64,000 nucleotides of DNA, from the NCBI GenBank assembly GCA_903813345.2, contig CAIIXF020000002.1:720001-784000 (forward strand). The letters run 5' to 3'. This document shows, in pieces, positions 2,317-33,346 of the stretch. Position 1 is the first letter of the stretch. Every line of letters starts with the position of its first letter. The position numbers and the translations under genes were made by a program. The notes under the pieces are model-generated. The model made no database searches and had not been told where the DNA came from. It worked only from the letters and a program-made list of their open reading frames with translations. Origin of the DNA: Owenia fusiformis (Eukaryota; Annelida; Polychaeta; Sabellida; Oweniidae).

Positions 2317-3041
2317 TTACTTGGTCTTCTCTCTAAGCTCAGCTCCTTGTTCTTTTGGAATTGATGGACTAGGCTTAAACCCATCCTGAATGACCTTATG
2401 TTTATTCCACATATGTTTTCGGAAGGAATTTGTTCTTGTAAAGCTTCTTTTACATAGCTCACAGAAAGGAGGTTGTATTCTCTTAGGTTTATAATCTTCT
2501 TGTATAATCTTATGTGTTTTTCTCATATGCAATCGAAGGGTGCATTTTTGTGAGAAACACTGCGCACATGTGTGACACTTAAAAGGTTTTTCTCCGGTAT
2601 GGATTCGCATATGATTTACAATATCATGCTTATTGTAAAACATCTTTTGACATATATCACAACAATGATATTTGGGTCTGGTGTTAATAGATTTCTTGGT
2701 CTTCTCAATAATGTCAGCTCTATGTTCTCCAGTGTGTATTTTCTCTCCAGTGCTTAACTTCTTGCCAGTACATAATTTCACTCCAGTGTACAATTTCTCT
2801 TTAAAGTGTAACTTCTCCTCAGTGTATAAGTTCTCCCCAGTGTGTAATTTCTCCCCAGTGTGTAATTTCTCCCCAGTGTGTAATTTCTCTCCAGTGTGGA
2901 ATTTCTCTCCAGTGTGGAATTTCTCCTCAGTTCTAAATCTCTCCTTGGCATGTACTCTCAAGCTGTGATCAGCGAAATTATTTGCAGTTAAAAACACGTC
3001 TCCACAAATCAAACAGTTGATCAAGCCATTGTAGACATCAC
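2317..3041 (-). CDS. Alternative terminal exon T12: four C2H2 fingers, short relative of T11
   Basis: The TATTTTCAG acceptor followed by GT gives GGT, reading GDVYNGLINCLICGDVF, nearly the same as T11. It encodes 241 residues: lead finger CLICGDVFLTANNFADHSLRVH, about 85 residues of TGEKLHTGEKL hexapeptide repeats, then CCDICQKMF...MRIH, CHTCAQCFSQKCTLRLHMRKTH and CELCKRSFTRTNSFRKHMWNKH, ending REKTK before a TAA. T11 continues with more fingers at this point. Decayed finger sequence does continue here below 2317, so this module was truncated by a stop. Confidence 0.82.
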
Positions 3042-3949
3042 CTGAAAATATCAGAATATTTTTATAAAAATATGAGTTCGTGTATGTAAGCTAAAAACCT
3101 CTTCAAAATATCTACTGTAGGTTTCATGTATATGAGTTAGAATGATACAGCAAACATCAACCAGGCATTAACATACAAAATGTAACCACCTGAAAACTTT
3201 TTTCAGATGACGAACTCTGAATGCCAAAAACCAACCACCGCAACAAAAAAGTTGGGAGACTATAACAATATGGGACGACTTGTTGTGGTGATATAATAAA
3301 CTTTTATATTAACAATATCCTTGATTATATAGCCTATATTATCAGCATAAGAAGTTCTCATTAATTTAAGGAAAAGTAAATGGGAATGGTTCTGTCGAAT
3401 TCAATTATACTTAAATGTACAGGTGCCGAGAGAGGCCTAAAAATGTATTTTAAAATATAAAGGTGAGACATCTACAAACTACTTGGAGTACTAGGTATCA
3501 ACAATAAGGGACTTCCTAGGGGGGTACATGGGCCAACCAGGGAGTTTCCTTTCAATTGTAAAATGGGTTGTAAACCATAGATCTATTTTTTAAATGTTAG
3601 GTTTATATTGTATTCTATATAATCTCTATCACTGTTAAACTGTATATCTGCTTTAAATGGGCTTGTTGCTAAACACATAATCACAATCAGGTATAGTTCA
3701 ATATAATCACAATCAACAGGTTTAATTGCTTTGTTATCTTTATTAAAATGTTACACTGTTGTTTACAATATGAAAACATTTTTAACTTTATATATATTAC
3801 AAGTGATCTAAATCTAATATTATACTATATAGGTGACAAGTCTGTATATTTCCTTGGAGGAAATGTATCAATAATATAGTAAAATAATACATGCTTCTTT
3901 ACAGTTATGATTTTAATATAATTGTTTTTAACTCTGTTCCCATTGCAGT

Positions 3950-4446
3950 GAAAAATGGGTATACATAGATATTGAATATACCATGTATCATTAGAACTTT
4001 TTATTAACCTTATTTGAATTTCTGTTGGCTTGTTTGAACTTTCTATTGACTTCTTTGAACTTTTTGTTAACTTAAAGAACTTTCTGTTGATGTTATTTGA
4101 ACTTCCCATTGACAAATTAGAACTTTTTGTTACCTAATATTTGAACCTTCTGTTAACTTTTTAGTATATAAGCTTCAGGTTCACAACTTAAACTTACTGT
4201 TGGCTCATTTAAGCTCTGTAGACCATGGGCTTTAACCAGAAAGCCCATGTGTAGACTGACTTGAACTCTCAGTTGCTTTATTTGAACTCTCTGTCAGCTC
4301 ATTTGAATTTTCTCTTGGATCATTTGAACTTTGAATTATTTATTAGCTGCATTACCTTTCAGTTGCCTCATTTGAACTTTCTTTGTGCATCAATTTGTTT
4401 TTCTTTGGATTATAACCTTCTTGTATCATCTTATGCTTGGATCAAT
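3950..4446 (-). pseudogene. Decayed continuation of T11's repeat tail
   Basis: Past the T11 stop the DNA still shows Ser/Asn/Lys/Glu repeat units (SSNKPTEI, KSSKKSIESSNKPTE on the minus strand around 4020-4110) and a fragment like YNQKEKQI near 4400. The copies are diverged and frame-broken, so the exon was once longer. Confidence 0.5.
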
Positions 4447-7400
4447 TTAATGTTGGATTGCCTCGTTTGAACTTTCTGTTGGCTTATTGGGACTTTCAAT
4501 TTTCTTATTTGAACTTTCTGATGACTTATTTGAACTTTCTTTTGCCTCACTTGAACTTTCTGTTACCTTATGTGAACTTCCTGTTGCCTTTGTTGAACTT
4601 TCTATTGCCTCATTTGAACTTTCTGTTACCTTATGTGAACTTCCTGTTGCCTTTGTTGAACTTTCTTTTGCCTCACTTGAACTCTCTGTTACCTTATGTG
4701 AACTTCCTGTTGCCTTTGTTGAACTTTCTATTGCCTCATTTGAACTTTCTGTTACCTTATGTGAACTTCCTGTTGCCTTTGTTGAACTTTCTTTTGCCTC
4801 ACTTGAACTTTCTGTTACCTTATGTGAACTTCCTGTTGCCTTTGTTGAACTTTCTATTGCCTCATTTGAACTTTCTGTTACCTTATGTGAACTTCCTGTT
4901 GCCTTTGTTGAACTTTCTTTTGCCTCACTTGAACTCTCTGTTACCTTATGTGAACTTCCTGTTGCCTTTGTTGAACTTTCTTTTGCCTCACTTGAACTTT
5001 CTGTTACCTTATGTGAACTTCCTGTTGCCTTTGTTGAACTTTCTTTTGCCTCACTTGAACTTTCTGTTACCTTATGTGAACTTCCTGTTGCCTTTGTTGA
5101 ACTTTCTATTGCCTCATTTGATCTTTCTGGTGAATCATTTGAACTTTTTGTTGCCTTGGGTAAACTTTCTATTGGCTCATTTGAACTTTCTCCATGTATC
5201 AGATTTTTTAGGCTCACTCGAGGCTTATAACCTTTTTGTATCATATTATGTGTTCTTCTCATATGTAATCGAAGGTTACTTTCCTGTGAGAAACGCCGTG
5301 CGCATATTTCACACATAAATGGTTTTTCCCCGGTATGGATTCGCATATGATTTACAACATCTTTCTTCCGGTAAAACATCTTTTGACAGATATCACAACA
5401 ATGATTTTTGGGTTTGGTAGGCTTCTTACTCTTCTCCTTTTTACTAAAGAAGTGTTTCCTTCTAGGTTTATAGTCTTCTTGTATCATATTATGTGTCCTC
5501 CTCATATGACATCGAACTGCACTTTTTTGTGAAAAACACATCTTACATAACTCACACTTAAAAGGTTTTTCACCAGTGTGGGTTCGCATATGATTTATAA
5601 CATCTTTCTTCTGGTAAAACATATTTTGACAGATATCACAACAATGATTTTTGGGTTTGGTAGGCTTCTTACTCTTCTTACTCTTCTCCTTTTTACTAAA
5701 GAAGTGTTTCCTTCTAGGTTTATAGTCTTCTTGTATCACCTTATGTGTATTCCTCATATGCCATCGAACGGTACCTTTTTGTGAGAAACACATCTCACAT
5801 AATTCACATTTAAAAGGTTTTTCGCCTGTATGGATTCGCTTATGATTTTCAACACCTTTCTTTTCATGAAACATCTTCTGACATATATCACAACTATGCT
5901 TTTTTGGTTTGGTAGGATTGGTAGGATTCTTACTCTTCTCCTTTTTACTAATGAAGTATTTCCTTCTAGGTTTATAGTCTTCTTGTATCATATTATGTGT
6001 CCTCCTCATATGCCATCGAACTGTACATTTTTGTGAAAAACACATCTTACATATCTCACACTTAAAAGGTTTTTCACCAGTGTGGGTTCGCATATGATTT
6101 ATAACAGCAATCTTACAATGAAACACTTTCTGACATATATCACAGCTATGCTTTTTGGAGTAGGTTTCATTTGAATTTTCTAATGGCTCATTTGAACATT
6201 CAATTGTCCTATTCAGTCTTTCTGTTGCCTTATTTGAACTTTCCATTGGTTTGTTTGAACCTTCTGTTGCCTTATTTGAACTTTCCATTGGTTTGTTAGA
6301 ACCTTCTGTTGCCTTATTTGAACTTTCCATTAGTTTGTTAGAACCTTCTGTTGCCTTATTTGAACTTTCCATTGGTTTGTTAGAACCTTCTGTTGCCTTA
6401 TTTGAACTTTCCATTGGTTTGTTTGAACCTTCTGTTGCCTTATTTGAGCTTTCCATTGGTTTGTTTGAACCTTCTGTTGCCTTATTTGAACTTTCCATTG
6501 GTTTGTTAGAACCTTCTGTTGCCTTATTTGAACTTTCCATTGGTTTGTTAGAACCTTCTGTTGCCTTATTTGAACTTTCCATTGGTTTGTTTGAACCTTC
6601 TGTTGCCTTATTTGAACTTTCCATTGGTTTGTTTGAACCTTCTGTTGCCTTATTTGAACTTTCCATTGGTTTGTTTGAACCTTCTGTTGCCTTATTTGAA
6701 CTTTCCATTGGTTTGTTAGAACCTTCTGTTGCCTTATTTGAACTTTTCATTGGTTTGTTAGAACCTTCTGTTGCCTTATTTGAACTTTCCACTGGTTTGT
6801 TTGAACTTTCTGTTGCCTCATCTGAAATCTCTATTGGCTCATTTGATTTTTCTGTTGCCTTTTGGAAACTTTCTGTTGCCTCATTTGAACATTCTTCATG
6901 TATTGAGCTGTTTTTCTTAGGTTTATAATCTTCTTGTATCACCTTATGTGTATTCTTCGTATGCCATCGAACGGTACATTTTCGTGAGAAACTCATCTCA
7001 CATAATTCACATTTAAAAGGTTTTTCGCCTGTATGGATTCGCATATGATTTATAACATCTTTCTTTTCATAAAACATCTTCTGACATATATCACAACAAT
7101 GCTTTTTGGATTTGGTAGATTTCTTGGTCTTCTCTTTAACCTCAGCTGTGTGTTCTTTTTGAATTAGTGGACTAGGATTTAAGCCATCTTGAATATCTTT
7201 ATGTTTACTCTCTTCAACAACCGCTCCACGTTTTTTTGGAATCAATATTTTATGTTTCTTCAACATATGATTCCGGAATGATTGTAAATGTGTAAAGCTT
7301 CTTTTACATTGCTCACAGAAAGGGAGTTGTATTCTCTTAGGTTTATAATCTTCTTGTATCACCTTATGTGTATTCCTCGTATGCCATCGAACAGTACTTT

Positions 7401-9167
7401 TTTGTGAGAAACTCATCTCACATAATTCACATTTAAAAGGTTTTTCGCCTGTATGGATTCGCATATGATTTATAACATCTTTCTTTTCATAAAACATCTT
7501 CTGACATATATCACAACAATGCTTTTTGGATTTGGTAGATTTCTTGGTCTTCTCTTTAACCTCAGCTGTGTGTTCTTTTTGAATTAGGATTTGACTAGGA
7601 TTTAAGCCATCTTGAATATCTTTATGTTTACTCTCTTCAACAACCGCTCCACGTTTTTTTGGAATCAAAATTTTATGTTTCTTCAACATATGATTCCGGA
7701 ATGATTGTAAATGTGTAAAGCTCCTTTTACATAGCTCACAGAAAGGAGGTTGTATTCTCTTAGGTTTATAATCTTCTTGTATCACCTTATGTGTATTCCT
7801 CGTATGCCATCGAACAGTACTTTTTTGTGAGAAACTCATCTCACATAATTCACATTTAAAAGGTTTTTCGCCTGTATGGATTCGCATATGATTTATAACA
7901 TCTTTCTTTTCATAAAACATCTTCTGACATATATCACAACAATGCTTTTTGGATTTGGTAGATTTCTTGGTCTTCTCTTTAACCTCAGCTGTGTGTTCTT
8001 TTTGAATTAGTGGACTAGGATTTAAGCCATCTTGAATATCTTTATGTTTACTCTCTTCAACAACCGCTCCACGTTTTTTTGGAATCAAAATTTTATGTTT
8101 CTTCAACATATGATTCCGGAATGATTGTAAATGTGTAAAGCTCCTTTTACATAGCTCACAGAAAGGAGGTTGTATTCTCTTAGGTTTATAATCTTCTTGT
8201 ATCATATTATGTTTTCTCCTCATATGCAATCGAAGGGTACATTTTTGTGAGAAACACATCTCACATATTTCACACTTAAAAGGTTTTTCGCCTGTATGAA
8301 TTCGCATATGATTTATAACATCTTTTTTATCGTAAAACATCTTTTGACATATATCACAACAATGATTTTTGGGTCTTGTATTAATGCTTTTCTTGGTTTT
8401 CTCTTCATTAACTTCAACTTTATCTTCTTCTTGGATTAATGAATTAGGCTTTAAATCATCTTGAACAACCTTAAATTGTGTGTCACTATTATTAACTTGT
8501 GTGTCACTATCATTAACTTGTGTGTCACTATCATCAAATTGTGTTCCACTCTCAAAACTTGTTCCATGTGTCAATTTCATATGACGCTGAAGGTTGCTCA
8601 ATTCAGCCCAATAGCTTTCCACACAAATGCTACACTTATATGGTTTTGAAATAATTCGTTCACTTCTATCAACAGTTTCACTAGTACTACTAATTAAAGT
8701 GTCTCCATTGTGCAATTTCCCACCAGTATATAATTTTTCTCCAGTGTGTAATTTCTCTCCAGTGTGCAATTCCTCACCAGTATATAACTTTTCTCCAGTG
8801 TGAAATTTCTCTTCAGTGTGCAATTCCTGACCAGTATATGAATTTTCTCCAGCGTGTAATTCCTCACCAGTGTGTAATTTCTCAACAGAATATAGCTTCT
8901 CCCCAGTGTGTAATACATCTCCAGTGGGTAATTTCTCTTGAAAGTGTAATTTCTCTCCAGTGTGTAATTCCTCACCATTGTATAATTTCTGCCAAGTCTG
9001 TAATTTCCCTTCAGCGTGTATGTCCTCTCCATTTCCAATGTTACATTTCTCCTCAGTGTTTAATCCCTCTTTGGCATGCGCTTTCAAGCAGTGCTCAGCA
9101 AAGGTGTTTGCAGTTGAAAACCTGTCTCCGCAAATCAAACAGTTGAAAAGTGCCCCGTGGACATCAC
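4447..9167 (-). CDS. Alternative terminal exon T11: giant 21-finger C2H2 module with three repeat tracts
   Basis: The TATTTCCAG acceptor followed by GT gives GGT with exon 2's G, reading GDVHGALFNCLICGDRF, so the first finger again starts upstream of the first ATG. It encodes 1573 residues in one exon. Order: lead finger; about 130 residues of hexapeptide HTGEKL-like repeats; a CSICVESYWAELSNLQRH finger; then repeated sets of CCDICQKMF / CE(L/I)CEMxFSQK / CELCKRSF fingers; a 14-residue repeat (SSNKATEGSNKPME, about 14 copies); four more finger pairs; and a C-terminal 21-residue repeat (SSTKATGSSHKVTE...) of about ten copies. In total I count 21 fingers. The three near-identical finger triplets (about 7.0-8.2 kb) are recent tandem copies. 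It is uninterrupted despite the repeats, arguing that it is maintained. Confidence 0.85.
4500..5110 (-). repeat. 63-bp coding minisatellite in T11 (21-residue repeat)
   Basis: About ten tandem copies of a 63-bp unit encoding SSTKATGSSHKVTESSSEAKE with alternation SSSEAKE/SSNEAIE, so the higher-order period is two units in part. The opposite strand is also open throughout because of the biased composition. Confidence 0.9.
6195..6830 (-). repeat. 42-bp coding minisatellite in T11 (14-residue repeat)
   Basis: About fourteen near-identical tandem copies encoding SSNKATEGSNKPME. It lies between two finger clusters and acts as a long, probably disordered, linker. Near identity of the copies implies recent homogenisation. 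Confidence 0.9.
8690..9040 (-). repeat. 18-bp coding repeat: zinc-finger linker hexapeptide array
   Basis: Period of 18 bp encoding variants of H-T-G-E-K-L, the C2H2 inter-finger linker, with no fingers between. Parallel tracts occur in T12 (about 2700-2940) and a vestige in T9 (about 15595-15640). Confidence 0.8.
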
Positions 9168-10340: not shown

Positions 10341-10439
10341 TATATTATATTATGTTATAGAGTAAAAACAATAAGTCAACAGGAACTAACAGAACTTTAA
10401 AATGTAACTAAACATAGTAGCAGTTTCATATTTCAACTT

Positions 10440-11640
10440 ATATGCAAATATTGCTACATGTCTTACACACCTACAATCTGCATGTTATCAGGTGTTTTTT
10501 CATAGATACCTTATATGCAAATATAGCTACATTGTCTTAAACAGCTACAAAACAATCTGCATGTTATTTGGTGTCTTTTCATAGATACCTTATACTGTTA
10601 TATGCAAATATAGCTACATTGTCTTAAACAGCTACAAAACAATCTGCATGTTATCTGGTGTCTTTTCATAGATACCTTATATGCAAATATAGCTACATTG
10701 TCTTAAACAGCTACAAAACAATCTGCATGTTATCTGGTGTCTTTTCATAGATCCCTTATATTCAAATATTGCTACATGTCTTAAACAGCTACAATCTGCA
10801 TGTTATCTGGTGTCTTTTCATAGATCCCTTATATGCAAATATTGCTACATGTCTTAACCAGCTACAATCTGCATGTTATCTGGTGTCTTTTCATAGATCC
10901 CTTATATTCAAATATTGCTACATGTCTTAAACAGCTACAATCTGCATGTTATCTGGTGTCTTTTCATAGATCCCTTATATGCAAATATTGATACATGTCT
11001 TAACCAGCTACAATCTACATGTTATCTGGTGTCTTTTCATAGATCCCTTATATGCAAATATTGCTACATGTCTTAACCAGCTACAATCACTCCCCCCAGT
11101 TTTCTGCAAGTTAAAATGCTCAATTCTGCAAGTGAAATTAGTGAATTCTGCAAGAAGAAAGGGCTAATTCTGCAGAAATTCCGCGGATATTAATGGTTTT
11201 CGAACCAGTAAACGGGAAAATATCGTGATAGTCAGGTAGTCGGTCATTACATACATGCTGCCATCTAACGGCAGAAATCAAACGATGGCGTTTAGAATTT
11301 TCACTTCGCATAATTTGGGTTATTTCTGCAAGGGATTTGACTGAAAACGTGTCAAATTGTTACAGGTAAGACTGACTTTTTAAACTTTTGGAAAATATAT
11401 GGATTCTGCGGAAAATTCCGCGGAAATTGACCAAAATAGTTGATTCTGCAATTCCGCGGGCAGAGGCAAATTCCGTCCGCGCTCTGCAAACACGGAATCC
11501 TGGGGGCAGTGTACAATCTGCATGTTATCTGGTGTCTTTTCATAGATCCCTTATATGCCAATATTGCTACATGTCTTAACCAGCTACAATCTACATGTTA
11601 TCTGGTGTCTTTTCATAGATCCCTTATATGCAAATATTGC
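10440..11640. repeat. 73-bp minisatellite seeded by the last zinc finger of T10
   Basis: About ten units (TATGCAAATATTGCTACATG...CTTTTCATAGATCCCTTA), interrupted by the transposon at 11088. On the minus strand each unit carries the codons FAYKGSMKRHQITC of the T10 terminal finger, mostly followed by stops. Confidence 0.85.
11088..11511. mobile_element. 424-bp transposon inserted into the T10 minisatellite
   Basis: Ends CACTCCCCCCAG / CTGGGGGCAGTG are inverted (11 of 12). The direct duplication TACAAT flanks it (11082-11087 and 11512-11517), and the interrupted array resumes on each side. The interior has several TTCTGCA motifs. Confidence 0.82.
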
Positions 11641-11853
11641 ATGGCATAAAGGGCAGGAATACTTAATTTTGCAATGGGCGGCTTGTTTATGCCTTTTAAG
11701 ATTGGATTTCAACATGGTTTTGTTGCACACATTACACACTCCACGATAGTCATCTTCATACTCAGCAGGGGTATGTTTCACGGAAATGTGCTCCTTCAGT
11801 TGTCTCTTCTGAGAATATGATTTCTCGCAACTTTCACATTTGAATGCCTTTTC
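11584..11853 (-). CDS. Terminal module T10, last exon: C2H2/C2HC fingers
   Basis: The TTATTGCAG acceptor enters in phase 0. It encodes CESCEKSYSQKRQLKEHISVKH, CNVCNKTMLKSNLKRHKQAAH and a final finger CPLCHAIFAYKGSMKRHQITC, which is C2HC in form, then RL and stop: 89 residues. The last 20 or so codons coincide with the first unit of the 73-bp tandem array that fills 10.44-11.64 kb, so the array was seeded by this exon's 3' end. Confidence 0.75.
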   Translation of the reverse strand, partial: EKAFKCESCEKSYSQKRQLKEHISVKHTPAEYEDDYRGVCNVCNKTMLKSNLKRHKQAAHCKIKYSCPLCHAIFAYKGSMKRHQITCRL

Positions 11854-12190: not shown

Positions 12191-12345
12191 CTCAACATGG
12201 GATAGTACATGCGCCCTATATTGCACAACACTTTGGTATCCCTTGCCGCAATGAGTGCATGTGTACTTTGGAACACCATGCTTCAACCTTGTATGATCAT
12301 AAAGGCCAGACGCCCCTTTAAATTTGAGGCCGCAATGACTGCACA
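12191..12345 (-). CDS. Terminal module T10, first exon: two C2H2 fingers
   Basis: The ATTCCAG acceptor followed by TG gives GTG with exon 2's G (phase 1). It encodes CSHCGLKFKGASGLYDHTRLKH and CTHCGKGYQSVVQYRAHVLSH. It then ends at GAG|GTATGA in phase 0, and the next exon at 11853 opens in phase 0 after TTGCAG, so the two join as ...SHVE|EKAFKC. Among the modules I could read, this is the only one split by an intron. A palindromic transposon abuts it upstream (12402-12880), less than 60 bp from the acceptor. Confidence 0.75.
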
Positions 12346-14323: not shown

Positions 14324-15732
14324 TCACAGTTTTTGATCAATGGAAACAGTCTCCAACTTGGGTGATAATGTTAAGGTTGACACTTTGTCTTCGATTTTCT
14401 TTTGATCTGAATGATATTTCCGCTTATGATTTGTCATTCCACTCTTTTGAGTAAAAGTTGAACTACAAACATCACATGTGAATGGTCTCTCTCCAGTATG
14501 GACGACCATATGTTTAATAAGAACAGATTTACATTCAAACCCTTTACTGCAAATTGCACAGAATATATTTTTCACCTTTTTCCTTTTTCGGGGGGCTCTT
14601 GTCATCGGTCTGTAAGCTTTGCGTGGTCGAAAATCAAGTTGTTTTACTTTATGGATCCTTCTCATATGTGCTCTTACAGCACTTTTCTGTGCAAAAGTCA
14701 TGTCGCAAACACTGCATTTGAATGGTTTTTCTCCAGTATGGATCCTTATATGGATTATAAGATTGGCTTTTGAATGAAACTTTTTACCACATATTTCACA
14801 GTCAACATTTTTCACTTTGATTTTCTTAGGTCTCTTCAATAGATCCTTAGATTTATTTTGTTCATTCATTTGTTGTTCATAAACATTTTGTTCATGGATT
14901 TGTAGTTTATTTCTTTGTTCTTTACAAGTTTGTCCTTCATTCATTTGTAGTACACTTATTTGTTCTTTATGAGCCTGTAGAGCATGATCTTGTTGTTCAT
15001 TTATCTGTCCTTCGTGTGTTTGTTCTTGATGGTTTGGTTTTTGTTCAGACTTGACTCTTTCCCCAGTGTGGACAGGCAAGTGATTTGAAAGTTCCCTTTT
15101 CCCATGAAACATTTCATGACATTTCGGACATTCAACCCTCGGCTGTCTGCTGGTCACTCTAATCCCATTGTATTTGTGAGGGCGAAAATCAGATTGTTTT
15201 ATCAAATGTACATTTCTTGCATGTGCTCGCATTGCACATTTTTGAATGAAGGTTTTTTCACAAATGTCACACTTAAAAGGTCTCTCGCCAGTGTGATTTC
15301 TTATATGGCCCTTCAAATGGTAATCCGACTCAAACATTTTGTGACATGTTTCACATTCAAATTTTTTCTCTCGAGGCTTTTTCTCCTTAAGCTTTGTTTT
15401 CATTTGTACATATCCAGTGTCAGTTAATCTCAACATGTACTTTGCAAGTTGTGTCCCATGTGTCAGTCTCATATGACGATCGAGGTTGCTTTTTTCAGAC
15501 CAATAGCTTTCCTTACAAAGTCCACACTTATATGGTTTTGAACTGATTTCCTTATGGTGAGAATCTTCTCTTGTGTGAGGATGAACATTTTCCTCTCCGG
15601 TGGATGGTGTTTTCTCTCCAGTGTGGAGTCTCTCCCTAGTATGTACTCTCATACAATGTTCTGTGAAGATGTTTGCAGATTGGAACATGGCTCCACAAAG
15701 CAGGCAGGTAAAAATACTTTGATAGTCACCAT
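14324..15732 (-). CDS. Alternative terminal exon T9: nine C2H2 fingers with Gln/Glu-rich spacer
   Basis: The GTTTTTCAG acceptor followed by AT gives GAT with exon 2's G, reading DGDYQSIFTCLLCGAMF, so the first finger begins upstream of the first ATG. It encodes 469 residues. Finger order: CLLCGAMF...CMRVH; CGLCKESYWSEKSNLDRH; CETCHKMF; CDICEKTF; CPKCHEMF; a spacer of about 80 residues of NEQ/HEQQ/KEQ repeats; then four more (CEICGKKF, CSVCDMTF, CAICSKGF, CDVCSSTF), each pair joined by TGE(K/R)PF linkers. The lead finger and the CxESYWxExSNLxRHM finger are shared with T11, and the lead finger with T12. A short HTGEK-type linker run (RLHTGEKTPSTGE) also occurs. Confidence 0.85.
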
Positions 15733-16733: not shown

Positions 16734-17475
16734 TTAGCCATCATGGTCATTCATGTGACTTTTTTTCATGTGCCTTTTCAAAGAAAATTTATTTGAAAAA
16801 TGTTTATGACACAACATACATTTGACTTTCAAGTTTTTGTGTATATGCATATGCTTCTTTAAATATCGTTGGCATGGAAACGACTTCTGGCATATGCTGC
16901 ATTTTATTTCAATTCTCTCATCTCTGCTTTTACATATATGTTCATGATTGTATTTAGCCGATAACAGTCCAAACTCCCTGTCGCAGTATTCGCATTTGTG
17001 AATCAAATTAACATGATGAGTCGACATATGATTTTTTAGTTCAGCAGATGTAGCAAACCACATATTTCACATGAGAATCGTAATTCATTGTTATCACGAT
17101 GGGCTCTCTGGGTATGTCTATGAAGACCGCTATGAGATTTAAACTCCTTAGAACACTGATCACATATGAGAGTATGGCTTCCATGTTTGTACCTTGCATG
17201 TTCAGCTAGGTTATACTTTGTACTGTATGTCTTATTACATGAATTGCACTTAAAATGAGAGGAATCGTCATGCGTTCTGTTATGGCGAGACAAATTGTAT
17301 TTCAATTGTGTTTCATAGTTGCAAAAGCTGCATTTGTATTTCTTAGTATTTTCATATGATGTACTTGTTGCCGGTGTATCCTTTGTAGAAATATTGAGGT
17401 AAGGATTACGATTTATATTTTCATCATTTATTCAAGGGTCATCACCAATAGAAATGTTGGAACAGGATTTTGATG
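16734..17475 (-). pseudogene. Decaying terminal exon T8: multi-finger module with stop and frameshift
   Basis: The TATTTTCAG acceptor followed by CA keeps the family phase (GCA). Thirteen codons into the exon there is an in-frame TGA in the context GAT GAC CCT TGA, then the frame continues through fingers CSFCNYETQLKYNLSRHNRTH, CNSCNKTYSTKYNLAEHARYKH and CDQCSKEFKSHSGLHRHTQRAH, and then breaks at CEIC. The next part (FATSAELKNHMSTHH and three more finger-like segments down to 16734) is in another frame. So there are about seven fingers with two independent lesions. Either this is a pseudo-exon, or the lesions are sequencing errors or heterozygous null alleles. Only a duplicate read of the locus can tell. 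Confidence 0.7.
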
Positions 17476-19073: not shown

Positions 19074-19336
19074 TTAAGATGTCTCGGAAGTTCTCGAAAG
19101 GTTCAACTTTCCATGTTTCTTTCTTTCATGTAGCCGCCTACTACTATTCTGAGTAAAGCACTTATCACACATGTTACATTTGAACGGGCGTTCCCTTGTA
19201 TGAACCCTTATATGGTCTTTAAGGTGGGCTTTGCTTTTGAATAATTTCAAGCAAAGATCACATCGATGCTTCCGGTTCGCAGAATCAAATCTTGAGCCGG
19301 AATCAAATCTAGAGCTGGGTTTCACAGAGAACATTC
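19074..19336 (-). CDS. Alternative terminal exon T7: two C2H2 fingers
   Basis: The TTTTTTCAG acceptor followed by GA gives GGA with exon 2's G, then ATG TTC. It encodes 87 residues: a Ser/Arg-rich leader with a repeated RFDSGSRFDS motif, finger 1 CDLCLKLFKSKAHLKDHIRVH, the variant linker TRERPFK, finger 2 CNMCDKCFTQNSSRRLHERKKH, and a Ser/Thr tail. Finger 2 resembles the second fingers of T9, T11 and T12 (CxxCFTQ/SQKxxxRxH), so this module sits between the short and long classes. Confidence 0.8.
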
Positions 19337-21077: not shown

Positions 21078-21313
21078 CTAATAGATGTTATGCTTGTTCT
21101 TCTTGTGGATTTTCAATGATGAAGCACGATTCATACGAACATCACATATATTACACTTGTAAGGCTTTTCTCCAGTATGAATTCTCATGTGGTCTGTTAA
21201 ATGATGTTTCCTTCGAAATCTCTTGTGGCAAAGGTCGCACATAAACGGTCTTGTCATCTTCAATTGGTAATCAGCTTCCTCATATGCATATATGTATGAA
21301 CTTGGAGTTGGCC
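21078..21313 (-). CDS. Alternative terminal exon T6: two C2H2 fingers
   Basis: The TTTTCCAG acceptor followed by GG gives GGG with exon 2's G. It encodes 78 residues: the leader GPTPSSYIYAYEEADYQLK, finger 1 CDLCHKRFRRKHHLTDHMRIH, linker TGEKPYK, finger 2 CNICDVRMNRASSLKIHKKNKH, then NIY and stop. Downstream (20.85-21.02 kb) are decayed fragments resembling TGGTGAAA linker coding sequence, which suggests that further finger sequence once followed. Confidence 0.82.
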
Positions 21314-22017: not shown

Positions 22018-22352
22018 CTACTTTTGCTGGCTAGCTTCGGCAACGTCTTGATGATAAGCCATAATATGGATCTTCAAAGAAAAATTGTCTTCCGATTTAT
22101 AGTCGCAAAAACTACATGTAAATTGCTTCGTCCTGTTAACATGAACAACGGCTATGTGATTCTTTAAAGTATGCACCCGTCCTGCCCGGTAGTCACAAAA
22201 TTCGCAAGCAAATGGTTTTTCTCTTGTATGTGTCATTTTATGTTGTGTTAAGTGGTGCCGTAGTCTGAACTGCTTATAGCATAGATCACAACGGAATGGT
22301 TTATCAATATTTTTGTTGGTGATCCGTGTCATTTGAGCTGTTTGTATTTCAC
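22018..22352 (-). CDS. Alternative terminal exon T5: three C2H2 fingers
   Basis: The TTTTTCAG acceptor followed by GT gives GGT with exon 2's G (phase 1). It encodes 111 residues with three fingers: CDLCYKQFRLRHHLTQHKMTH, CEFCDYRAGRVHTLKNHIAVVH and CSFCDYKSEDNFSLKIHIMAYH, then the tail QDVAEASQQK. Fingers 2 and 3 are of the CxFCDY(R/K) type, lacking the usual Phe, a type common in long-range DNA-binding polydactyl factors. It is the only module of the 'HHL' class with a third finger. Confidence 0.82.
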
Positions 22353-23178: not shown

Positions 23179-23426
23179 TCACATGTTATGATGTTTCTTC
23201 ATGTGAGTCTTCAGGTTAAAGGCTTTTGTAGAGCGATAAGCACAAACAGTGCAACAAAATGGCTTCTCGCCAGTATGGATCCTTTCATGCTCCTTCAAAT
23301 GATGGCCAAGTCGAAATCCTTTGAGGCAAACATTGCACCTAAATGGCCTCTCTATTGCCTCACGGTTTCTTTCTGGCGCCTCATATTTTCTGTACATAAC
23401 CTCAGATTCAACTTGCGTGAAATGAA
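23179..23426 (-). CDS. Alternative terminal exon T4: two C2H2 fingers
   Basis: The TTTTTCAG acceptor followed by TT completes GTT (Val) with exon 2's G. It encodes 82 residues ending at a TGA. Finger 1 is CNVCLKGFRLGHHLKEHERIH, followed by TGEKPFC, and finger 2 is CTVCAYRSTKAFNLKTHMKKHH. The short charged leader (VESEVMYRKYEAPERNREAIE) has no recognisable domain. It belongs to the short two-finger class with T3, T5, T6 and T7. The homology of the 'HHL' finger across these neighbouring modules points to local tandem duplication of an exon module. Confidence 0.82.
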
Positions 23427-24504: not shown

Positions 24505-24722
24505 TCAAAAATGGTGTGATTTTTTATGTGACTTTAACTGGTATCCCCTCATTGCACTAAAATCACACATGTCACATTTATAGGGTTTCTCTCCAGTATG
24601 AATCCTAGTATGTTCAGTTAAGTGATGTTTCAGGCGGAAACTCTTTAAGCAGATTTTACACTCAAATGGCTTATCCTTTTCAATATAACAAACGTAGCAA
24701 TTTGGCTGAATGGATCCATTAC
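24505..24722 (-). CDS. Alternative terminal exon T3: two C2H2 fingers
   Basis: A short module with no ATG near its start, so it can only be translated after splicing. The TTTTTCAG acceptor is followed by GT, giving GGT (Gly) with exon 2's G. It encodes 72 residues: a lead peptide, finger 1 ([21 protein letters not shown]), the classical TGEKPY linker, and finger 2 ([21 protein letters not shown]), then HF and a TGA at 24507-24505. The finger 1 core RLKHHLTEH resembles that of T4, T5 and T6. Degenerate copies of its 3' end lie at 24.0-24.5 kb. Confidence 0.8.
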
Positions 24723-25504: not shown

Positions 25505-25935
25505 CTTTGTAGGCAACTTTATATTTATTCCATGTGCTTTTTTGTAAATGTCATCACTATCTACTGTAAGTAACTTCATATTTATGCCTTGTGCTTTTTG
25601 TAAATGTCATCACCTTCTACTCTATGTAACTTCATATTTATGCCATGTGCTTTTTGTAAATGTCATCACTGTCTTCTATATGTAAATTCATATTTATGCC
25701 ATGTGCTTTTTGTAAATGTCATCACCTTCTACTCTATGTAACTTCATATTTATGCCATGTGCTTTTTGTAAATGTCATCACTGTCTACTATATGTAAATT
25801 CATATTTATGCCATGTGCTTTTTTGTAAATGTCATCACTATCTACTGTAAGTAACTTCATATTCATGCCATGTGCTTTTTGTAAATGTCATCACTATCTA
25901 CTGTATATAACTTCATATCTATGCCGTGTGCTTTT
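25505..25935. repeat. 57-bp minisatellite seeded by the T2 tail
   Basis: About seven units of ATTTATGCCATGTGCTTTTT..GTAAATGTCATCACTATCTACTGTA type. Minus strand reads the T2 tail (DSDDIYKKHMA) in every unit. The unit nearest T2 is part of its coding sequence. Confidence 0.85.
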
Positions 25936-26122
25936 TGTAAATGTCTTTTATAGGATCGCAGCCATGTGAAAATACTTCCACAGCTACACTGATATTTTGA
26001 GGTACCATGTTTATATTGAACATGCTCTGCCAAACCATCTCTTCTTTTAAATTTCTTGTGGCATAATTCACAACGGAATTGGCCGTCCTTTGTTTTTCCA
26101 ACACCAATGGCTGAGTTCATCA
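25863..26122 (-). CDS. Alternative terminal exon T2: two C2H2-type fingers, second C-x-C
   Basis: The GTTTTCCAG acceptor is followed by TG, completing a GTG codon with exon 2's G (phase 1). It encodes 86 residues: finger 1 CELCHKKFKRRDGLAEHVQYKH, then YQCSCGSIFTWLRSYKRHLQ with KAH. The second finger has C-x1-C spacing instead of C-x2-C. Only the DNA sequence of its own tail (GIDMKLYTVDSDDIYKKHMA) is tandemly repeated downstream at 25.5-25.9 kb. The upstream intron carries the 51-bp acceptor-like array. An ATG follows the acceptor immediately, but I prefer the spliced reading because all modules share the phase. Confidence 0.8.
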
Positions 26123-26139
26123 CTGGAAAACATCAAATT

Positions 26140-27412
26140 GGTCAGTTATACCTCTTTTATACACTTGAAAATAACAAGACATCTCAGTTAGAGACCATCT
26201 ACCTCTTTTATACACTGGAAAATAACAAGACATCCCATTTAGAGACCATCTACCTCATTTATATACTGGAAAATAACAAGTCATCCCATTTAGAGACCAT
26301 CTACCTCATTTATACACTAGAAAATAACAAGACATCCCATTTAGAGACCATCTTCCTCTTTTATACACTGGAAAATAACAAGACATCAAATTTAGAGACC
26401 ATCTACCTCTTCTACACACTGGAAAATAACAAGACATTCCATTTAGAGACCATCTACTCTTTTATACACTGGAAAATAACAAGACATCCCATTTAGAGAC
26501 CATATACCTCATTTATACACTGGAAAATAACAAGTCATCCCATTAAGAGACCATTTACCTCATTTATATACTAGAAAATAACAAGACCTCTCATTTAGAG
26601 ACCATCTTCCTCTTTTATACACTGGAAAATAACAAGACATCAAATTTAGAGACCATCTACCTCTCCTACACACTGGAAAATAACAAGACATTCCATTTAG
26701 AGACCATCTACTCTTTTATACACTGGAAAATAACAAGTCATCTCATTTAGAGACCATCTACCTCTTTTATACACTGGAAAATAACAAGACATTTCATTTA
26801 GAGACAGTCCACCTCTTTTATACACCAGAAAATAACAAGACATCCCATTTAGAGACCGTCTTCCTCTTTTATACACTGGAAAATAACAAGACATCTAGTT
26901 TAGAGACCATCTACCTCTTTTATACACTGGAAAATAACAAGATATCTCATTTAGACCATCTACCTCTTCCATACACTGGAAAATAACAAGATATCTCATT
27001 TAGAGACCATAACCTCTTTTATACACTGGAAAATAACAAGACATCCCATTTAGAGACCATCTACCCCTTTAATAAACTGGAAAATAAAAAGACATCTCAT
27101 TTAGAGACCATCTACCTCTTTTATACATTGGAAAATAACAAGATATCTCATTTAGAGACCATCTACCTCTTTTATACATTGTAAAATAACAAGACATCTC
27201 ATTTAGAGACCATCTACCTCTTTTATACATTGGAAAATAACAAGATATCTCATTTAGAGACCATCTACCTCTTTTATACATTGGAAAATAACAAGACATC
27301 CCATTTAGAGACCATCTACCCCTTTAATAAACTGGAAAATAAAAAGACATCTCATTTAGAGACCATCTACCTCTTTTATATCCTGGAAAATAACATTTAA
27401 GACATCTCATTT
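26140..27412. repeat. 51-bp minisatellite with acceptor-like motif, upstream of T2
   Basis: About 25 tandem units containing TACACTGGAAAATAACAAGA and TTTAGAGACCATCTACCTC. On the transcribed minus strand each unit reads TTGTTATTTTCCAG|TGTATAAAAG, close to the true T2 acceptor GTTTTCCAG|TGATGA, which lies at the array's end. Reading frame in the units is open over several hundred bases (MSCYFPVYKRGRWSLNE, 17 residues). Confidence 0.88.
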
Positions 27413-28538: not shown

Positions 28539-28753
28539 TCATGGCAGGTCAGGGTGACATCTGTGTTTATGGCGCCGATATGAACGTTCCCATGTAAACA
28601 ACTTTCCACAACAGCGATATTCTTCTTTTCCATGAAAAAACTTAGTATGTTCCGCTAAGGAACCCTTTCCCTTATAAGTTTTGAAACAAAGGGGACAGCG
28701 TAAGGACTGGCCATCATTAGATTTGTTAATGCCCATTTGGTATGGATACAAGT
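28539..28753 (-). CDS. Alternative terminal exon T1: two C2H2 fingers, second atypical
   Basis: Nearest terminal module to the common exons. The TTTTCCAG acceptor at about 28754 followed by AC gives GAC with the leftover G of exon 2, so it is in phase 1. It encodes 71 residues and stops at 28539. Finger 1 is a normal C2H2 (CPLCFKTYKGKGSLAEHTKFFH). Finger 2 starts YRCCGKLFTWERSYRRH and ends in KHRCH: its two zinc-binding cysteines are adjacent rather than separated by two residues, though a later Cys could take part. Module T2 has a closely related second finger, so T1 and T2 are probably sister copies. The 3' side is bounded by a 90-bp tandem array. Confidence 0.8.
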
Positions 28754-28794
28754 CTGGAAAACAGCAAAACAATCCTTTTATTGATAACAACATC

Positions 28795-29070
28795 TCAACT
28801 TGGGCATAAACAAATCTTAATAATGTGATTCATAAATTATAAACTTGGCATCCAAATGTCTTAATCTTACATTATGAAATCTCAAATTGGCATTCTGGAG
28901 TTTTGCATCCGGAAATTTTAACTTGGCATTCTTGAATCTCAACTTTGCATTTCGATGTCTCAACTTGACTTTTTGGTGTCTTCCTTTGCATTCTGAAATC
29001 TAAAATTGGTGTGCTTTGATCTCAACTTGGCATCAATAAATCCTCAACTTGGTACACCATTGATGCTCAA
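28795..29070. repeat. Degenerate 28-bp tandem repeat upstream of T1
   Basis: Diverged copies of CTCAACTTGGCATTCTGAAAT in the intron immediately 5' of T1. Confidence 0.6.
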
Positions 29071-32058
29071 TAAATATATTCCCAACAACACTTATTAGAC
29101 TATACACAAATGTACATCTATTCATAATCAACCTTGGTTCCATGGTAGAAAAGAGACAAGCCAAAACCTAAGTAATCAAGAGTAAATTCCTGCCATTTGA
29201 GGCAATCACTTGAGGAATTATCATATCATGAGCACATTTTAATGATTGATTCCTGCATGCACGTCCCACCACCTTGAAATATCATCAACAACCTTAATGT
29301 ATGCATGGTGATCTCCTAATATGGTGATGTCCAAATATGGTGATCTCCAAATATGTCCTTGTCATGGTGATGTCCAAATATGTCCTCATCGCTATCCTTC
29401 AAACAAAGCCCTGTCTTCTGGAGAGAAAATGACAACAGCGGAGGAAAGTCTACCAAAGGGTACAACTTATCATTCTGAGATGTATAATACCATATTAATG
29501 TATATTTCAAAATGAGTCCCAGCCCTGGTACCTGCTAATAAAACTCCTAAATCCAATATAAAACAAACTGCAAAATAATGCACAGCTCTAAATAATTAGT
29601 CCATAGAGTGTCCAATCATTAAAACCTTAGATTGCCAAGAGCTGTGCACTAAAGTAAAATAAAAAAATCCTGAAATGAAATTCAGTTTGATGTTGTATTT
29701 TGGTTGATGGCAGCTTCTATGTACCTGGACACCTGATACTCTAACAATATGCCATAAGTTATAATGACAATGTCAAATTCAGAATTCCCATATGTGTATG
29801 TATTTTAAAACAGTAAAGCAAAGTAAATCATGCAAAACTGACAGTCTTACAACAATTCCTTCTCTTTATGTACATAATATGAAATCTTCTCTTCGCATCA
29901 ACTTTTTTAGAATAAGATAGTTCAGATTCTCCCCTTAATTTTTTTTCTCAGGGAGCAAAACTTCATTATTCATACATAAATAACCATGATTTAAAACCCG
30001 GTCTGAATGCATGACCATGATTATCTACATTCCTGATGCAAATTTACTTTTAAATAGAGACAACTTTTATATTATATTGCTGGGAAGATCTAAATACTCA
30101 ACTTAGTAGATTATTTTACAGAACTACATGCGTGAGGTGAAATATATGAAATACAATTTTTTTATATAGATAATTCATCTGTACTAAATGATTTTCAAAG
30201 ATCATTTGATGCGTGTCTGATTTTTCTTCGAAATGAAATGGCAAAAAATTTCAAACTTAGTCTTAGTGCTTATAAAAAAACAAAACCTTAAAAGAACTTA
30301 AAGGGATACAGATAACTTAAAGTTAAAAGACTCAAACAATGGTCACAATTTACATTTTGTTTGCTCTTATTCCATCGAATCAAACAGTTCTATATCATAT
30401 CAGGATAATCATCAAAGGTGATATGGCAAAAATTTTTTGTGAATTTTGACAATCTTAATCTTCAATAACTTCAAAATTTGATCAAAAATCTCATTTTTTA
30501 CAGAATATTAAATCAGGAAAGGAATTGAAAGTAAGCAAAGGCAGTTTTCAAAATTTAATTATTTATGTCAAAAGTTTACACTCCATCCCTTTAAATTCTT
30601 TTAATAGCCCTTAAGATTTTCCACTTTTGATATATGCACTGATAATACCCTCTTATGTTGGAGGATTATGAGTAAACAAAAGCACAAGAGTTGTGTAATT
30701 CATATATTTCACCTATAAGACCTCATATTCATTGTTCAATTTCTTGAGCTATTTGAGTAACATGTTTGTGTCTTAAAATGCAGACCCCTCTTTGTTTGAG
30801 TCACGTTGATGAACTTTTTGAAGTTATGGCAATGTTCTCCGCAGGATTTTTTCTCAAGTGGGTGCAAAATTCTCATTTTCATTATTCAGACCAAAATTGG
30901 TCAAAAAATGCCAATTTTTCATGATTTTTCTCATTGTCAGCAGGTGCAAATGGATTTTCAGGCGGATGCAAGCCAGATTTTACAATCTCAGGTGGGTGCT
31001 GTGCCTACTTGCTTTGATGCTAGAGAGATCACTCTATGGTTATCTTGGTTTTGAATAAATGAGCAAAAATATATAGATAATTTGCCCCTTTCTGGTTTTA
31101 CTACAGGTCAGCAACAAATCACTAGTATTGGTGCAAAAGTGGTTAAACTGCAGGAATTCGAAAAATGATTGTGGTAACTAACTGGCATGTCTTGAAGAGG
31201 GGTCTACATCTAATTGGATGAAGAAATGTGTGCTTAATGAAATGAATTGTGAATGACTATTATATTGTGCTGGTATTACAATTTAGGCAAATTTGTGTTG
31301 GTTAATTTCATTTATCGCAGTTTTAAAAATTGTCAATTTTCATGAGGTTAAGTTCTATTTGTAGGCTTTGTTCATGACTAAGTTTGAAAAAACAGTGATC
31401 TCCACAGGATTTTTTCTCAAATGGGCGCAAAATTCTCATTTTCACAATTCAGACCAAAATTGGTCAAATTTCATTATTTTTCTCATTTTCAATTGGGTGC
31501 AAATGGATTTTCAGGTGGGTGCAAACCTATTTTCAAAATCTCAGGTGGGTGCTACGCCCACTTGCTTTAATGCTTGGGAGATCACTGAAACATATTTGTC
31601 AAAATTTACTAGTCCACTGTCCAATAGGTACCTTATTTTAAGTTCATTTCCAGGAGTACCATTTGGCAATTACCCAAATGCGAGTAGGTAGTTTTTCAAA
31701 GTTGATAAACACTTTTTAAAACCACATTGCTAGATGTAATTTTACATGTAGATTTCAAATATGATATTACTTAGACTGAATTTTTAATGACGTAAATCAA
31801 GCTTATTTCTACTCGCATCTGGGTTATTGGTATTGAGCATAAACTGAATATGGTGAACTAATGTTTTCAACATTATAGATGTAAATCCCTGTAGAATTGT
31901 TTGCTATGCAGGAGAATTTAGATACCCATTTGGGGATTCAGGGTTGTTTTGACAACTGAAGGTCTGCATCTTAGATGTGTGTGCCTAATGGTGTTGGATG
32001 AGATGAGAAATTGAACAAAGAATTTCAGGTCTTCTATAACAAAGGAAAATCAACCCAC
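29071..32058. other. Intron between common exon 2 and T1
   Basis: Apart from two copies of the 200-bp element and a small ATGGTGATGTCCAAATATG repeat at 29310-29390, I see no zinc-finger coding or exon-like segment. Confidence 0.5.
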
Positions 32059-32397
32059 CTGATTGGTCACCCATATCGCCACCTGCAACCTGCATAGCAC
32101 CACCTGCATCATGCATTTGAGATTCATCACCGGTATCCGCACTTGCGTATGTATTATTCATTGAGTCCATATTATCAAATGTCCTTGTAGTATCATCCCC
32201 TTCAGCACCCATCCAACTAGCACCAGCTGTCTCAGTGTCCCCTTCACCGCCATCATCATCTTCTTCATCATTTAGTTCAATTGTAATAGCTTCCTCTTTA
32301 ATGTTATATTTTGCTAGTTTGGCTGGAACTTCTTCATTTTGATCAAGATTGGAATCACTGTTTTTCCGTTTGGAATTTGGAGAGGTATCGGGTTCAG
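32059..32397 (-). CDS. Common second exon: acidic linker with basic patch and SUMO-type motif
   Basis: Bounded by a TTTCAG acceptor and a GTGGGT donor. It enters in phase 1 and leaves in phase 1 (2 nt + 112 codons + 1 nt), so it joins exon 1 without a frame break. It encodes a short basic patch (SKRKNSD), then IKEE, a psi-K-x-E match of the type used for SUMO conjugation, then an Asp/Glu-rich run and a low-complexity Gly/Met/Asp tail. The paralogue's exon 2 has the same order (FKKTK, then IKTE, then an acidic stretch). The leftover G is the base that each downstream zinc-finger acceptor needs. Reading past the donor meets a stop within about 20 codons, so a non-spliced short form is conceivable. 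Confidence 0.8.
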
Positions 32398-32874
32398 CTG
32401 AAATTATGAATTTATTTGTATTATGATAACAAAAAGGCGTAGTTACAGGATATCTAGAATGACTGGCAGTTTCTGTTTTGAGATTCTCCGTAAGACTTGC
32501 CTCTAAACCCGATCAGAAGTTTCCAATTTGAGTGACGCTGCATATATACTAATTCTAAAGTCTCAGGAGTAATTTTATGTATATGTTGAATATATGTAGG
32601 GTGATGAGAATTAGGAAATAATTTAAGAGTAAATTTAATTGAATATCAAGCTGTATTTTAAGAGTGACAGGCTCTGATAGAGCCATATGCCCTATTGGTC
32701 TAAGCCTATGCTCTATTGGTCACTGCATGTCACTTATAGTACTTAATCAGGGAAGGGGGTAAAACGTGAAGGCTGAATATCCAACTTGAAAAAACATTTT
32801 ATCAGGGGTTAACTCTATCAGAAACATAATACATGAGTCAGTTCCACACTGTTCATTTATGTAAAAATATTTAC

Positions 32875-33346
32875 CTTTTATATTTGTTACTGAGTAATCA
32901 CTGTCAATATCTAGACCACCAGGTGTCTCTTGTGTTGCTGTTGGTTCTGGTGGTTCATGAACCTCATTAAATGTCCTTTTGGGTGGCTCATTCACAACAG
33001 TATGTTTAGATTTATATGGACCACGATGACCGGGTCTACTTTCAGATCTGCGAGGTGTTGAAGAGTCATAGCTATCAAATGAAGTGTTTCTAGGGGTATT
33101 TGTATTCGCAGTATTTTGCCAGTCAGCCTCAAGGGACGGGGACCATGATTCTACGGGTGTAGGGGCCACTTCGGGTTTCACTATAGTTCGATGCATTTTA
33201 ACGACAATATCCCGTTGTTCTTCTCCACTGGATACACAAATGATCCCATCGATTTCCAGGGACTTTTGGAACATGATGTTTTGCGTACAGAGTTTCAGGA
33301 CGGCATCTTGGATCATTTGGGTGATCATTGGATTATACGTCCCCAT
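32875..33346 (-). CDS. Common first coding exon of the multi-terminal-exon zinc-finger gene
   Basis: Starts at the ATG at 33346 (M-G-T-Y-N-P) and ends in phase 1 at a GTAAAT donor, giving 157 codons plus one base. I chose this ATG because the plus-strand paralogue at 38602 starts at the equivalent residue (M-G-S-S-N-P). The first 60 or so residues are strongly conserved between the two: QMIQDxVLxLCTQ, SLxIDGIxCxS, and VKMHRTIxKP. I do not recognise this domain; it is not a BTB/POZ domain. The rest is Pro/Ser/Thr-rich with basic patches and looks disordered. Inferred role: the constant N-terminus of a family of nuclear zinc-finger isoforms, perhaps mediating dimerisation. The open frame extends 22 codons upstream of this ATG without a better start. 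Confidence 0.8.

What the first reader, a model, noticed from the sequence alone, without database searches (positions are those of the whole stretch)
2317..33346. A lola-like locus: one constant N-terminus, at least twelve alternative zinc-finger C-termini over 31 kb
All twelve finger modules are on the minus strand, and each starts at a good acceptor in phase 1, matching the single leftover G of common exon 2. Eleven give frames free of stops. T3 has no start codon of its own, and the lead fingers of T9, T11 and T12 begin upstream of their first ATG, so these must be spliced to something. The arrangement is analogous to lola and mod(mdg4) (established), but here the constant region is a different, unrecognised domain, so the architecture looks convergent. 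It would yield a combinatorial set of DNA-binding isoforms.
Basis: partly seen in the sequence, partly recalled or inferred. Interest (0 to 1): 0.93.

Follow-up and report, generated by a model that had tools for sequence, protein, structure and literature searches.

The report
Zinc-finger gene with many swappable ends
An animal gene appears to attach one shared front end to any of a dozen or more different DNA-reading tails, and it belongs to a family of similar loci found mostly on one chromosome, which would be a second way for animals to make many gene regulators from single genes.

Summary
Two constant exons (33346-32875, 32397-32059, minus strand) end in phase 1 and are followed by twelve C2H2 finger units on the same strand, each with a phase-1 acceptor. 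T8 is decayed and T10 is really a two-exon unit. The array continues left of the window. The constant domain (about 60 aa, no Pfam or PDB match) gave 57 hits in the genome, 48 on this contig. Two paralogous loci, A and B, hold at least 41 and 27 finger exons behind one constant region each. Over the three loci 76 multi-finger frames are sense and 0 antisense, and the best acceptor is phase 1 in 68 of 75. Of 132 short finger frames on the contig, 125 lie within 100 kb downstream of a same-strand constant exon (2 with strands flipped). Best reading: lola-like loci on an unrelated N-terminal domain, in which a constant N-terminus is spliced to alternative finger C-termini. Splicing is inferred, since no RNA was available; cis versus trans is open. 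Against: only one of five randomly drawn constant copies had fingers 3-13 kb downstream, and only three of seven finger frames left of the window favour phase 1.

The parts
32875..33346 (-). Constant exon 1 (CDS 472 nt, ends phase 1); codes the new ~60-aa N-terminal domain MGTYNPMITQMIQDAVLKLC...VVKMHRTIVKP
   Evidence: domain repeated in the genome, 53 copies aligned
32059..32397 (-). Constant exon 2 (339 nt, phase 1 to phase 1): basic patch, psi-K-x-E (IKEE), hydrophobic-acidic ITIELNDEED, ASWMG motif; donor cag|gtgggt
   Evidence: phase 1-1 in 17 of 18 distinct paralogue fits; 12 of 30 distinct copies not fitted, this one among them
28539..28753 (-). T1 alternative terminal exon: one C2H2 finger plus a second Cys/His motif
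   Evidence: zf-C2H2 E 0.0086, below the curated cut-off
25863..26122 (-). T2 alternative terminal exon, related to T1 (53% identity)
   Evidence: below the zf-C2H2 cut-off
24505..24722 (-). T3 alternative terminal exon, two fingers, no ATG before the first finger
   Evidence: just below the Pfam cut-offs
23179..23426 (-). T4 alternative terminal exon, two fingers
22018..22352 (-). T5 alternative terminal exon, three fingers
21078..21313 (-). T6 alternative terminal exon, two fingers
19074..19336 (-). T7 alternative terminal exon, two fingers
16734..17475 (-). T8: decayed unit; the phase-1 acceptor leads to a stop after 14 codons, fingers lie in other frames and the frame breaks near 17060
14324..15732 (-). 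T9 alternative terminal exon, eight fingers; lead finger related to T11 and T12
12191..12345 (-). T10a: first exon of a two-exon end (phase 1 acceptor, phase 0 donor gag|gtatga)
   Evidence: a unit built alike at C2:709959/709549
11584..11853 (-). T10b: second exon of the same end (phase 0 acceptor ttgcag), joined through a linker VEEKAFKC
4447..9167 (-). T11 alternative terminal exon, 1579-aa open frame, about 20 fingers with coding minisatellites
2317..3041 (-). T12 alternative terminal exon, paralogue of T11 (74% DNA identity over acceptor and exon start)
38602..38793 (+). Second, divergent copy of the constant domain, head-to-head with the first; an exon-2-like frame at 39654-40133 was seen by eye only; no fingers found on the plus strand to 64000
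   Evidence: not fitted by the exon-2 rule

Best explanation
This is one gene that makes a set of transcription factors. A promoter upstream of 33346 (probably with a non-coding first exon, as an acceptor-like site lies just before the ATG) drives two constant exons. The phase-1 donor of the second (32059) is spliced to one of many downstream terminal units, each with its own acceptor, C2H2 fingers and stop. Isoforms share the N-terminal domain and the acidic exon-2 segment and differ in DNA recognition. Shown from sequence: the anatomy, the phase match, a single constant region per array strand, constraint on finger exons, and repetition of the design in paralogous loci. Inferred: that splicing happens, that it is in cis, that the N-terminal domain makes contacts shared by all isoforms (by analogy with BTB in Lola), and that exon 2 is a SUMO-attachment and SUMO-binding segment.
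For: Twelve of twelve window acceptors are phase-1 compatible. Over three loci 76 multi-finger frames are sense and 0 antisense, and 68 of 75 best acceptors are phase 1 (one more frame had no acceptor). The constant domain was found once on the array strand in each of the window, A and B. Of 132 short finger frames on the contig, 125 lie within 100 kb downstream of a same-strand constant exon; 2 after strand flipping; 64 of 70 (1 flipped) outside the window, A and B. Recent duplicates: homology starts 32-88 nt before the acceptor in 3 of 5 locus-A pairs and 74 nt before it in T11/T12. 30 of 73 exons have no ATG before the first finger. dN/dS of the closest pairs is 0.14-0.62 where dS could be estimated. 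Contact residues of the first two fingers differ in 36 of 36 exons compared in A and 25 of 25 in B. One paralogue (C2:11634406) holds the domain and fingers in one open frame. Copies with four or more detected modules have shorter constant-domain branches (median 0.079, n=10, vs 0.41, n=35).
Against: No RNA evidence of any kind. Of five constant copies drawn at random from 40, only one had a finger exon 3-13 kb downstream. The second copy in the window has none within 25 kb. Left of the window only 3 of 7 finger frames have phase 1 as best acceptor, and of three hits predicted there only two do. Homology reaches about 880 nt upstream in one A pair and starts inside the exon in one A pair and in T3/T6; one A pair also has an offset upstream match. 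The exon-2 rule failed in 12 of 30 distinct copies. 43 of 73 exons do have an ATG before the fingers. 13 of the 132 frames also have a same-strand constant within 100 kb on the wrong side. Eight of the 21 constant copies that own a module own only one.
Confidence: 0.86

Rival explanations
1. The same exons are joined, but by trans-splicing: constant exons and groups of finger exons are separate transcripts with promoters of their own, as reported for lola and mod(mdg4).
For: Arrays are long (A about 87 kb from constant exon to last finger exon); trans-splicing is described for both fly loci (PMC11426971 and PMC4667647, passages).
Against: All multi-finger frames in the three arrays are on the constant strand, so nothing requires trans joining; in fly mod(mdg4) nine isoforms use the opposite strand (PMC4667647, passage).
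Confidence: 0.12
2. A tandem cluster of separate zinc-finger genes, each with its own promoter and short first exon, lying by chance downstream of the constant-domain gene.
For: 43 of 73 exons contain an ATG between acceptor and first finger; the genome has long-frame finger clusters elsewhere, e.g. on contig 12; upstream homology of about 880 nt in one duplicate pair.
Against: Phase 1 matching the constant donor, 30 of 73 exons without an ATG, strict orientation, and association with constant exons; homology of several recent duplicates begins near the acceptor.
Confidence: 0.05
3. The arrays are mostly relics: a few finger exons are used and the rest are decaying duplicates.
For: T8 is broken, locus A has an apparently frameshifted unit near 34331400, and locus B carries stop-separated tandem copies of one finger; array DNA of the window is rich in minisatellites.
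Against: Eleven of twelve window units are open, 79 exons over three loci have a phase-1 acceptor and an open finger frame, and the closest pairs show dN/dS below 1 where it could be estimated.
Confidence: 0.05

Closest known systems
Drosophila lola (BTB-C2H2, about 20 isoforms; PMC1947980, PMC11426971, passages)
   Same: Shared N-terminal exons joined to alternative C-terminal exons, most with C2H2 fingers.
   Different: No BTB domain; N-terminal domain unknown to Pfam and PDB; locus A has at least 41 finger exons; many copies of the constant part in one genome.
Drosophila mod(mdg4) (BTB-FLYWCH, at least 31 isoforms; 9-41 combinations in six insects; PMC4667647, passages)
   Same: Single 5' constant part with a large array of alternative 3' parts; numbers comparable with locus A.
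   Different: FLYWCH in most ends instead of C2H2; some ends on the opposite strand in flies; all multi-finger frames found here are on one strand.
KRAB-, ZAD- or SCAN-zinc-finger families
   Same: An N-terminal domain joined to diversifying C2H2 fingers, expanded in clusters (recalled).
   Different: Those families multiply whole genes (recalled); here finger exons multiply behind one constant part, and no such domain was matched.
Clustered protocadherins
   Same: Array of variable exons sharing a constant part.
   Different: Order reversed: variable exons first, constant exons last; cell-surface proteins (recalled).

Membership tests
lola / Tramtrack-group BTB-zinc-finger genes | BTB domain in the constant N-terminus | tested here: not met
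   No BTB match in the window constant region or in 53 constant-domain copies; none of the 146 BTB hits reported lies in the window locus, A or B (150 of 196 candidates scored).
lola / Tramtrack-group BTB-zinc-finger genes | One constant part followed by several alternative, phase-compatible C-terminal exons | tested here: met
   (sequence anatomy only).
lola / Tramtrack-group BTB-zinc-finger genes | Most alternative ends carry C2H2 fingers | tested here: inconclusive
   The ends found do (T1, T2 and T3 score below Pfam cut-offs), but ends were sought by their fingers, so ends without fingers would not have been seen.
lola / Tramtrack-group BTB-zinc-finger genes | Transcripts joining constant and variable exons, in cis or trans | not testable with these tools
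lola / Tramtrack-group BTB-zinc-finger genes | Arthropod gene | tested here: inconclusive
   Organism not identified: no COX1 match in the assembly; the two papers listed for the assembly size are on plants.
mod(mdg4) | FLYWCH domains in most variable ends | tested here: not met
   7 of the 13 window finger exons were scanned against Pfam; all matched C2H2-type families and none FLYWCH.
KRAB / SCAN / ZAD zinc-finger genes | Named N-terminal domain present | tested here: not met
   No such Pfam match at E up to 0.1 in 53 copies.

The most novel reading that the evidence does not exclude
An animal chromosome carries a superfamily built on a new N-terminal domain (57 hits in the genome, 48 here). 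At least thirteen copies already show two or more finger units downstream, some copies stand in head-to-head pairs, and much of the family's diversity is made by choice of terminal exon rather than by whole genes. About 150 ends are seen, and several hundred are plausible. It would have arisen independently of the insect BTB loci, and may serve cell identity or silencing of mobile elements.
Probability: 0.65. Interest if true: 0.93.

Novelty: new variant of a known kind. Interest (0 to 1): 0.86.

Why it matters
To my knowledge, and within the searches made, large constant-plus-alternative-finger loci are known mainly from insects (lola, mod(mdg4)) and rest on the BTB domain. Such loci on a different, undescribed domain would show that the design can evolve again, that one locus can hold at least 41 finger ends, and that a genome can expand it to many loci. 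It makes testable why a shared N-terminus plus interchangeable DNA-reading ends is favoured, and offers recently duplicated exons in which DNA specificity can be watched changing while the rest of the protein stays fixed.

Tried and rejected
Pfam and PDB for the constant region: nothing credible, best E 0.017 in a single member. Structure prediction of the domain from the two window copies: mean pLDDT 54, too poor for a fold search, so none was run; only the hint of one helix and three strands is kept. COX1 search to identify the organism and papers giving the assembly size: none useful. My guess from memory that it could be the annelid Owenia fusiformis (about 500 Mb, 12 chromosomes, recalled) is untested; a paper search with that name listed nothing on it.

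Considered and rejected: that the fingers are chance frames (76 sense to 0 antisense); that each end has its own constant exon (one found per array strand in the window, A and B); that the phase result is a general bias (random frames give phase 1 in 38.6%).

Limits of my measures: the acceptor and donor scores use frequencies from memory and were set after I had seen the window acceptors, before A and B. The exon-2 rule rewarded acidic and long exons, and some exon-1 donors it chose may be wrong. The SUMO-like patterns were written after seeing the peptides, and those peptides are related. The hit list was typed by hand. The 11-kb limit for pairs was chosen after seeing the layout.

Paper searches for this family or a lola-like design outside arthropods: (search listings only); none listed one. 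The library holds open-licence papers only, so this does not show that it is unpublished.
Full report
WHAT WAS CLAIMED.

CHECK. The gene model reads as stated. Exon 1 codes from 33346 to 32875 (472 nt), exon 2 is 32397 to 32059 (339 nt), and both end in phase 1. Each of the twelve acceptors ends in AG and gives phase 1, most behind a clear pyrimidine tract; T10's is weak. Eleven open into C2H2 fingers. T8 does not: it stops after 14 codons, its fingers lie in other frames, and these break again near 17060, so it looks decayed. T10's apparent end (HVEV, then stop) is better read as an unspliced donor: gag|gtatga in phase 0 fits an acceptor at 11853 in phase 0 and adds three more fingers through a linker VEEKAFKC. 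No convincing finger lies on the plus strand of the window.

THE LOCUS IS NOT ALONE. A translated search with the constant domain gave 57 hits at E up to 1 in the 498-Mb genome, 45 of them below 1e-8; 48 of the 57 lie on this 35.75-Mb contig. The copy on contig 483 equals one on contig 2 over the 75 residues printed and may be a leftover haplotype. Of the 57, three were not fetched and one identical copy was dropped; 53 align with a core IQDAVLKLCTQ...LEIDGIICVS...IVVKMHRTI. No credible Pfam and no PDB relative was found.

TWO FURTHER LOCI READ. I fetched the stretches downstream of two close paralogues: B (C2:32275001-32335000, with one 500-N gap) and A (C2:34308001-34398000). Counting only frames with a phase-1 acceptor scoring 0 or more, A has 41 finger exons, B 27 and the window 11 (other frames were left out there). 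A's finger frames end near 34311417 and B's near 32284586. Most ends there have two or three fingers. The constant domain was found once on the array strand in each.

STATISTICS. On the window, A and B before extension, 76 frames with two or more fingers are sense and none antisense. With an acceptor score blind to phase, the best acceptor is phase 1 in 68 of 75 (one further frame had no acceptor), and in 54 of 55 with score 3 or more. By locus: window 8 of 11, B 23 of 27, A 37 of 37. Random frames give 38.6% (3577 of 9276), p about 5e-21 if exons were independent, which they are not, being duplicates. 30 of 73 exons have no ATG before the first finger.

ACROSS THE CONTIG. I pooled contig-2 hits with frames up to 250 aa from four module searches (three of them scored only 150 of over a thousand candidates, the fourth all 148 or more it lists; all but one of the tandem single-finger copies in B were not entered). 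After merging there are 132. Of these, 125 lie within 100 kb downstream of a same-strand constant exon (45 contig-2 copies used). Controls: 2 when module strands are flipped; 8.6 on average and 55 at most with constants placed at random; 13 have a same-strand constant on the wrong side. Without the window, A and B: 64 of 70, against 1 flipped. 21 constant copies own at least one module, 13 own two or more, 10 own four or more, and eight own one; these are lower bounds. Adding the 79 exons, these 64 hits, four hits left of the window and one exon found gives about 150 ends; the 64 are hits, not exons checked base by base.

RESULTS AGAINST. Five constant copies drawn at random from 40 gave a finger exon 3-13 kb downstream in only one. 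All five have weaker matches (E above 1e-16), and one of the four without a finger there has a hit 24.5 kb downstream; but on this sample most copies lack a near array. The second copy in the window has no fingers within 25 kb. In the 20 kb left of the window, seven finger frames are all minus, but the best acceptor is phase 1 in only three; of the three frames predicted there, two. Of the four that fail, one looks like the phase-0 second exon of a unit built like T10 (709959 + 709549), one has a phase-1 site scoring 2.1 below a phase-0 site at 5.5, and two (712965, 712519) are unexplained and may form a multi-exon unit.

WHY NOT SEPARATE GENES. Among five recent duplicate pairs of locus A, homology begins 32, 36 and 88 nt before the acceptor in three, about 880 nt before it in one, and inside the exon in one; in the window it begins 74 nt before it for T11/T12 and inside the exon for T3/T6; the 88-nt pair also has a weaker, offset match further upstream. 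In several pairs the duplicating unit is thus branch-point region, acceptor and exon, without a first exon. With the shared phase this fits alternative terminal exons. A paralogue with the domain and fingers in one open frame (C2:11634406) supports that the two belong together in proteins.

SELECTION AND DIVERSITY. The closest pairs (the top 30 were printed) have dN/dS of 0.14 to 0.62 where dS could be estimated; in the rest dS was saturated. Predicted contact residues (positions -1, 2, 3, 6, recalled numbering) of the first two fingers differ in 36 of 36 exons of A and 25 of 25 of B that were compared, and no two of the 79 exons share a full signature. Constant copies with four or more modules have short terminal branches (median 0.079, n = 10) against the rest (0.41, n = 35), Spearman -0.59, and -0.53 without the three query loci. 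Eight distant rows were left out of the tree; it rests on 62 columns, few forks are resolved, and module counts favour loci resembling the queries.

THE CONSTANT PART. Exon 2 could be fitted in 18 of 30 distinct copies tried; 17 are phase 1 to phase 1 (one duplicate row removed). The window's own copy was not fitted by the rule and was checked by hand. Of 19 exon-2 peptides, 16 hold psi-K-x-E and 13 a hydrophobic core followed by acids such as ITIELGDDDD; shuffled peptides give 3.1 and 0.7. The copies are related and the patterns were written after seeing them, so this is not an independent test. The motifs resemble a SUMO acceptor site beside a SUMO-interacting motif (recalled definitions); that reading is inference. 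The structure model of the domain is poor, so the proposal that it mediates contacts between isoforms is by analogy with BTB.

LAYOUT. Of the 48 contig-2 hits, 43 were placed (five weak or second-domain hits left out). Seven neighbouring pairs lie within 11 kb and all seven are head-to-head, p about 4e-5 from strand frequencies, with a limit chosen after seeing the layout. An eighth, with a weak double-domain copy at 33050621, was not in that list. One pair (14481198/14491747) are each other's closest relatives.

COMPARISON. Lola has at least 20 isoforms, made from BTB-bearing common exons and unique, mostly finger-bearing exons (PMC1947980, passages; PMC11426971, passages). Mod(mdg4) has at least 31 in flies, and 9 to 41 combinations in six insects, partly from the opposite strand (PMC4667647, passages). 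This locus works like them in anatomy. It is not a member: the BTB domain is absent. Searches for a similar design elsewhere listed none, within an open-access library only.

VERDICT. Observation confirmed and interpretation supported; the finding is larger than stated, though how many constant copies head arrays is not settled. The kind of system is known; the domain, the number of loci and the concentration on one contig look new. What is missing is RNA.

Noticed in passing
window 38602-38793 (+), C2:758602: A second constant-domain copy, divergently placed 5.3 kb from the first; six other such head-to-head pairs lie within 11 kb on the same contig.
   Followed up: partly
C2:11634406 (L057): A copy in which the constant domain and C2H2 fingers share one open frame, perhaps a retrocopy or an ancestral form.
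   Followed up: partly
C2:33050621, C2:4535804, C11:12129516 (L059, L060, L061): Distant copies carry the domain twice in tandem within one open frame.
   Followed up: no
window 4447-9167 and 2317-3041: T11 and T12 exons contain coding tandem repeats whose reported periods are all multiples of three (18, 42, 54, 63, 252, 420), including repeated two- and three-finger units (score 200 or more).
   Followed up: partly
window 10437-11088; C2:32293608-32295290: A 73-bp minisatellite that by eye resembles the end of T10b, and several tandem copies of one finger (about 147 bp apart) behind a locus-B exon: slippage near finger exons may seed new units.
   Followed up: no
window 26149-27395: 51-bp tandem repeat, 24.5 copies, starting 27 nt upstream of the T2 exon.
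   Followed up: no
window 41441-42352 (+): Open frame with a DUF3504 match (E 2.7e-9), downstream of the second constant copy.
   Followed up: partly
window 50420-50908 (+): Reverse-transcriptase fragment (RVT_1, E 1.9e-13).
   Followed up: no
window 51682-52944 (+): Leucine-rich-repeat protein frame of 420 aa (LRR_8, E 4.5e-104).
   Followed up: no
C2:24119778-24258687: A cluster of mostly long-frame C2H2 hits on the same contig; its short frames had no listed same-strand constant copy within 100 kb upstream.
   Followed up: no
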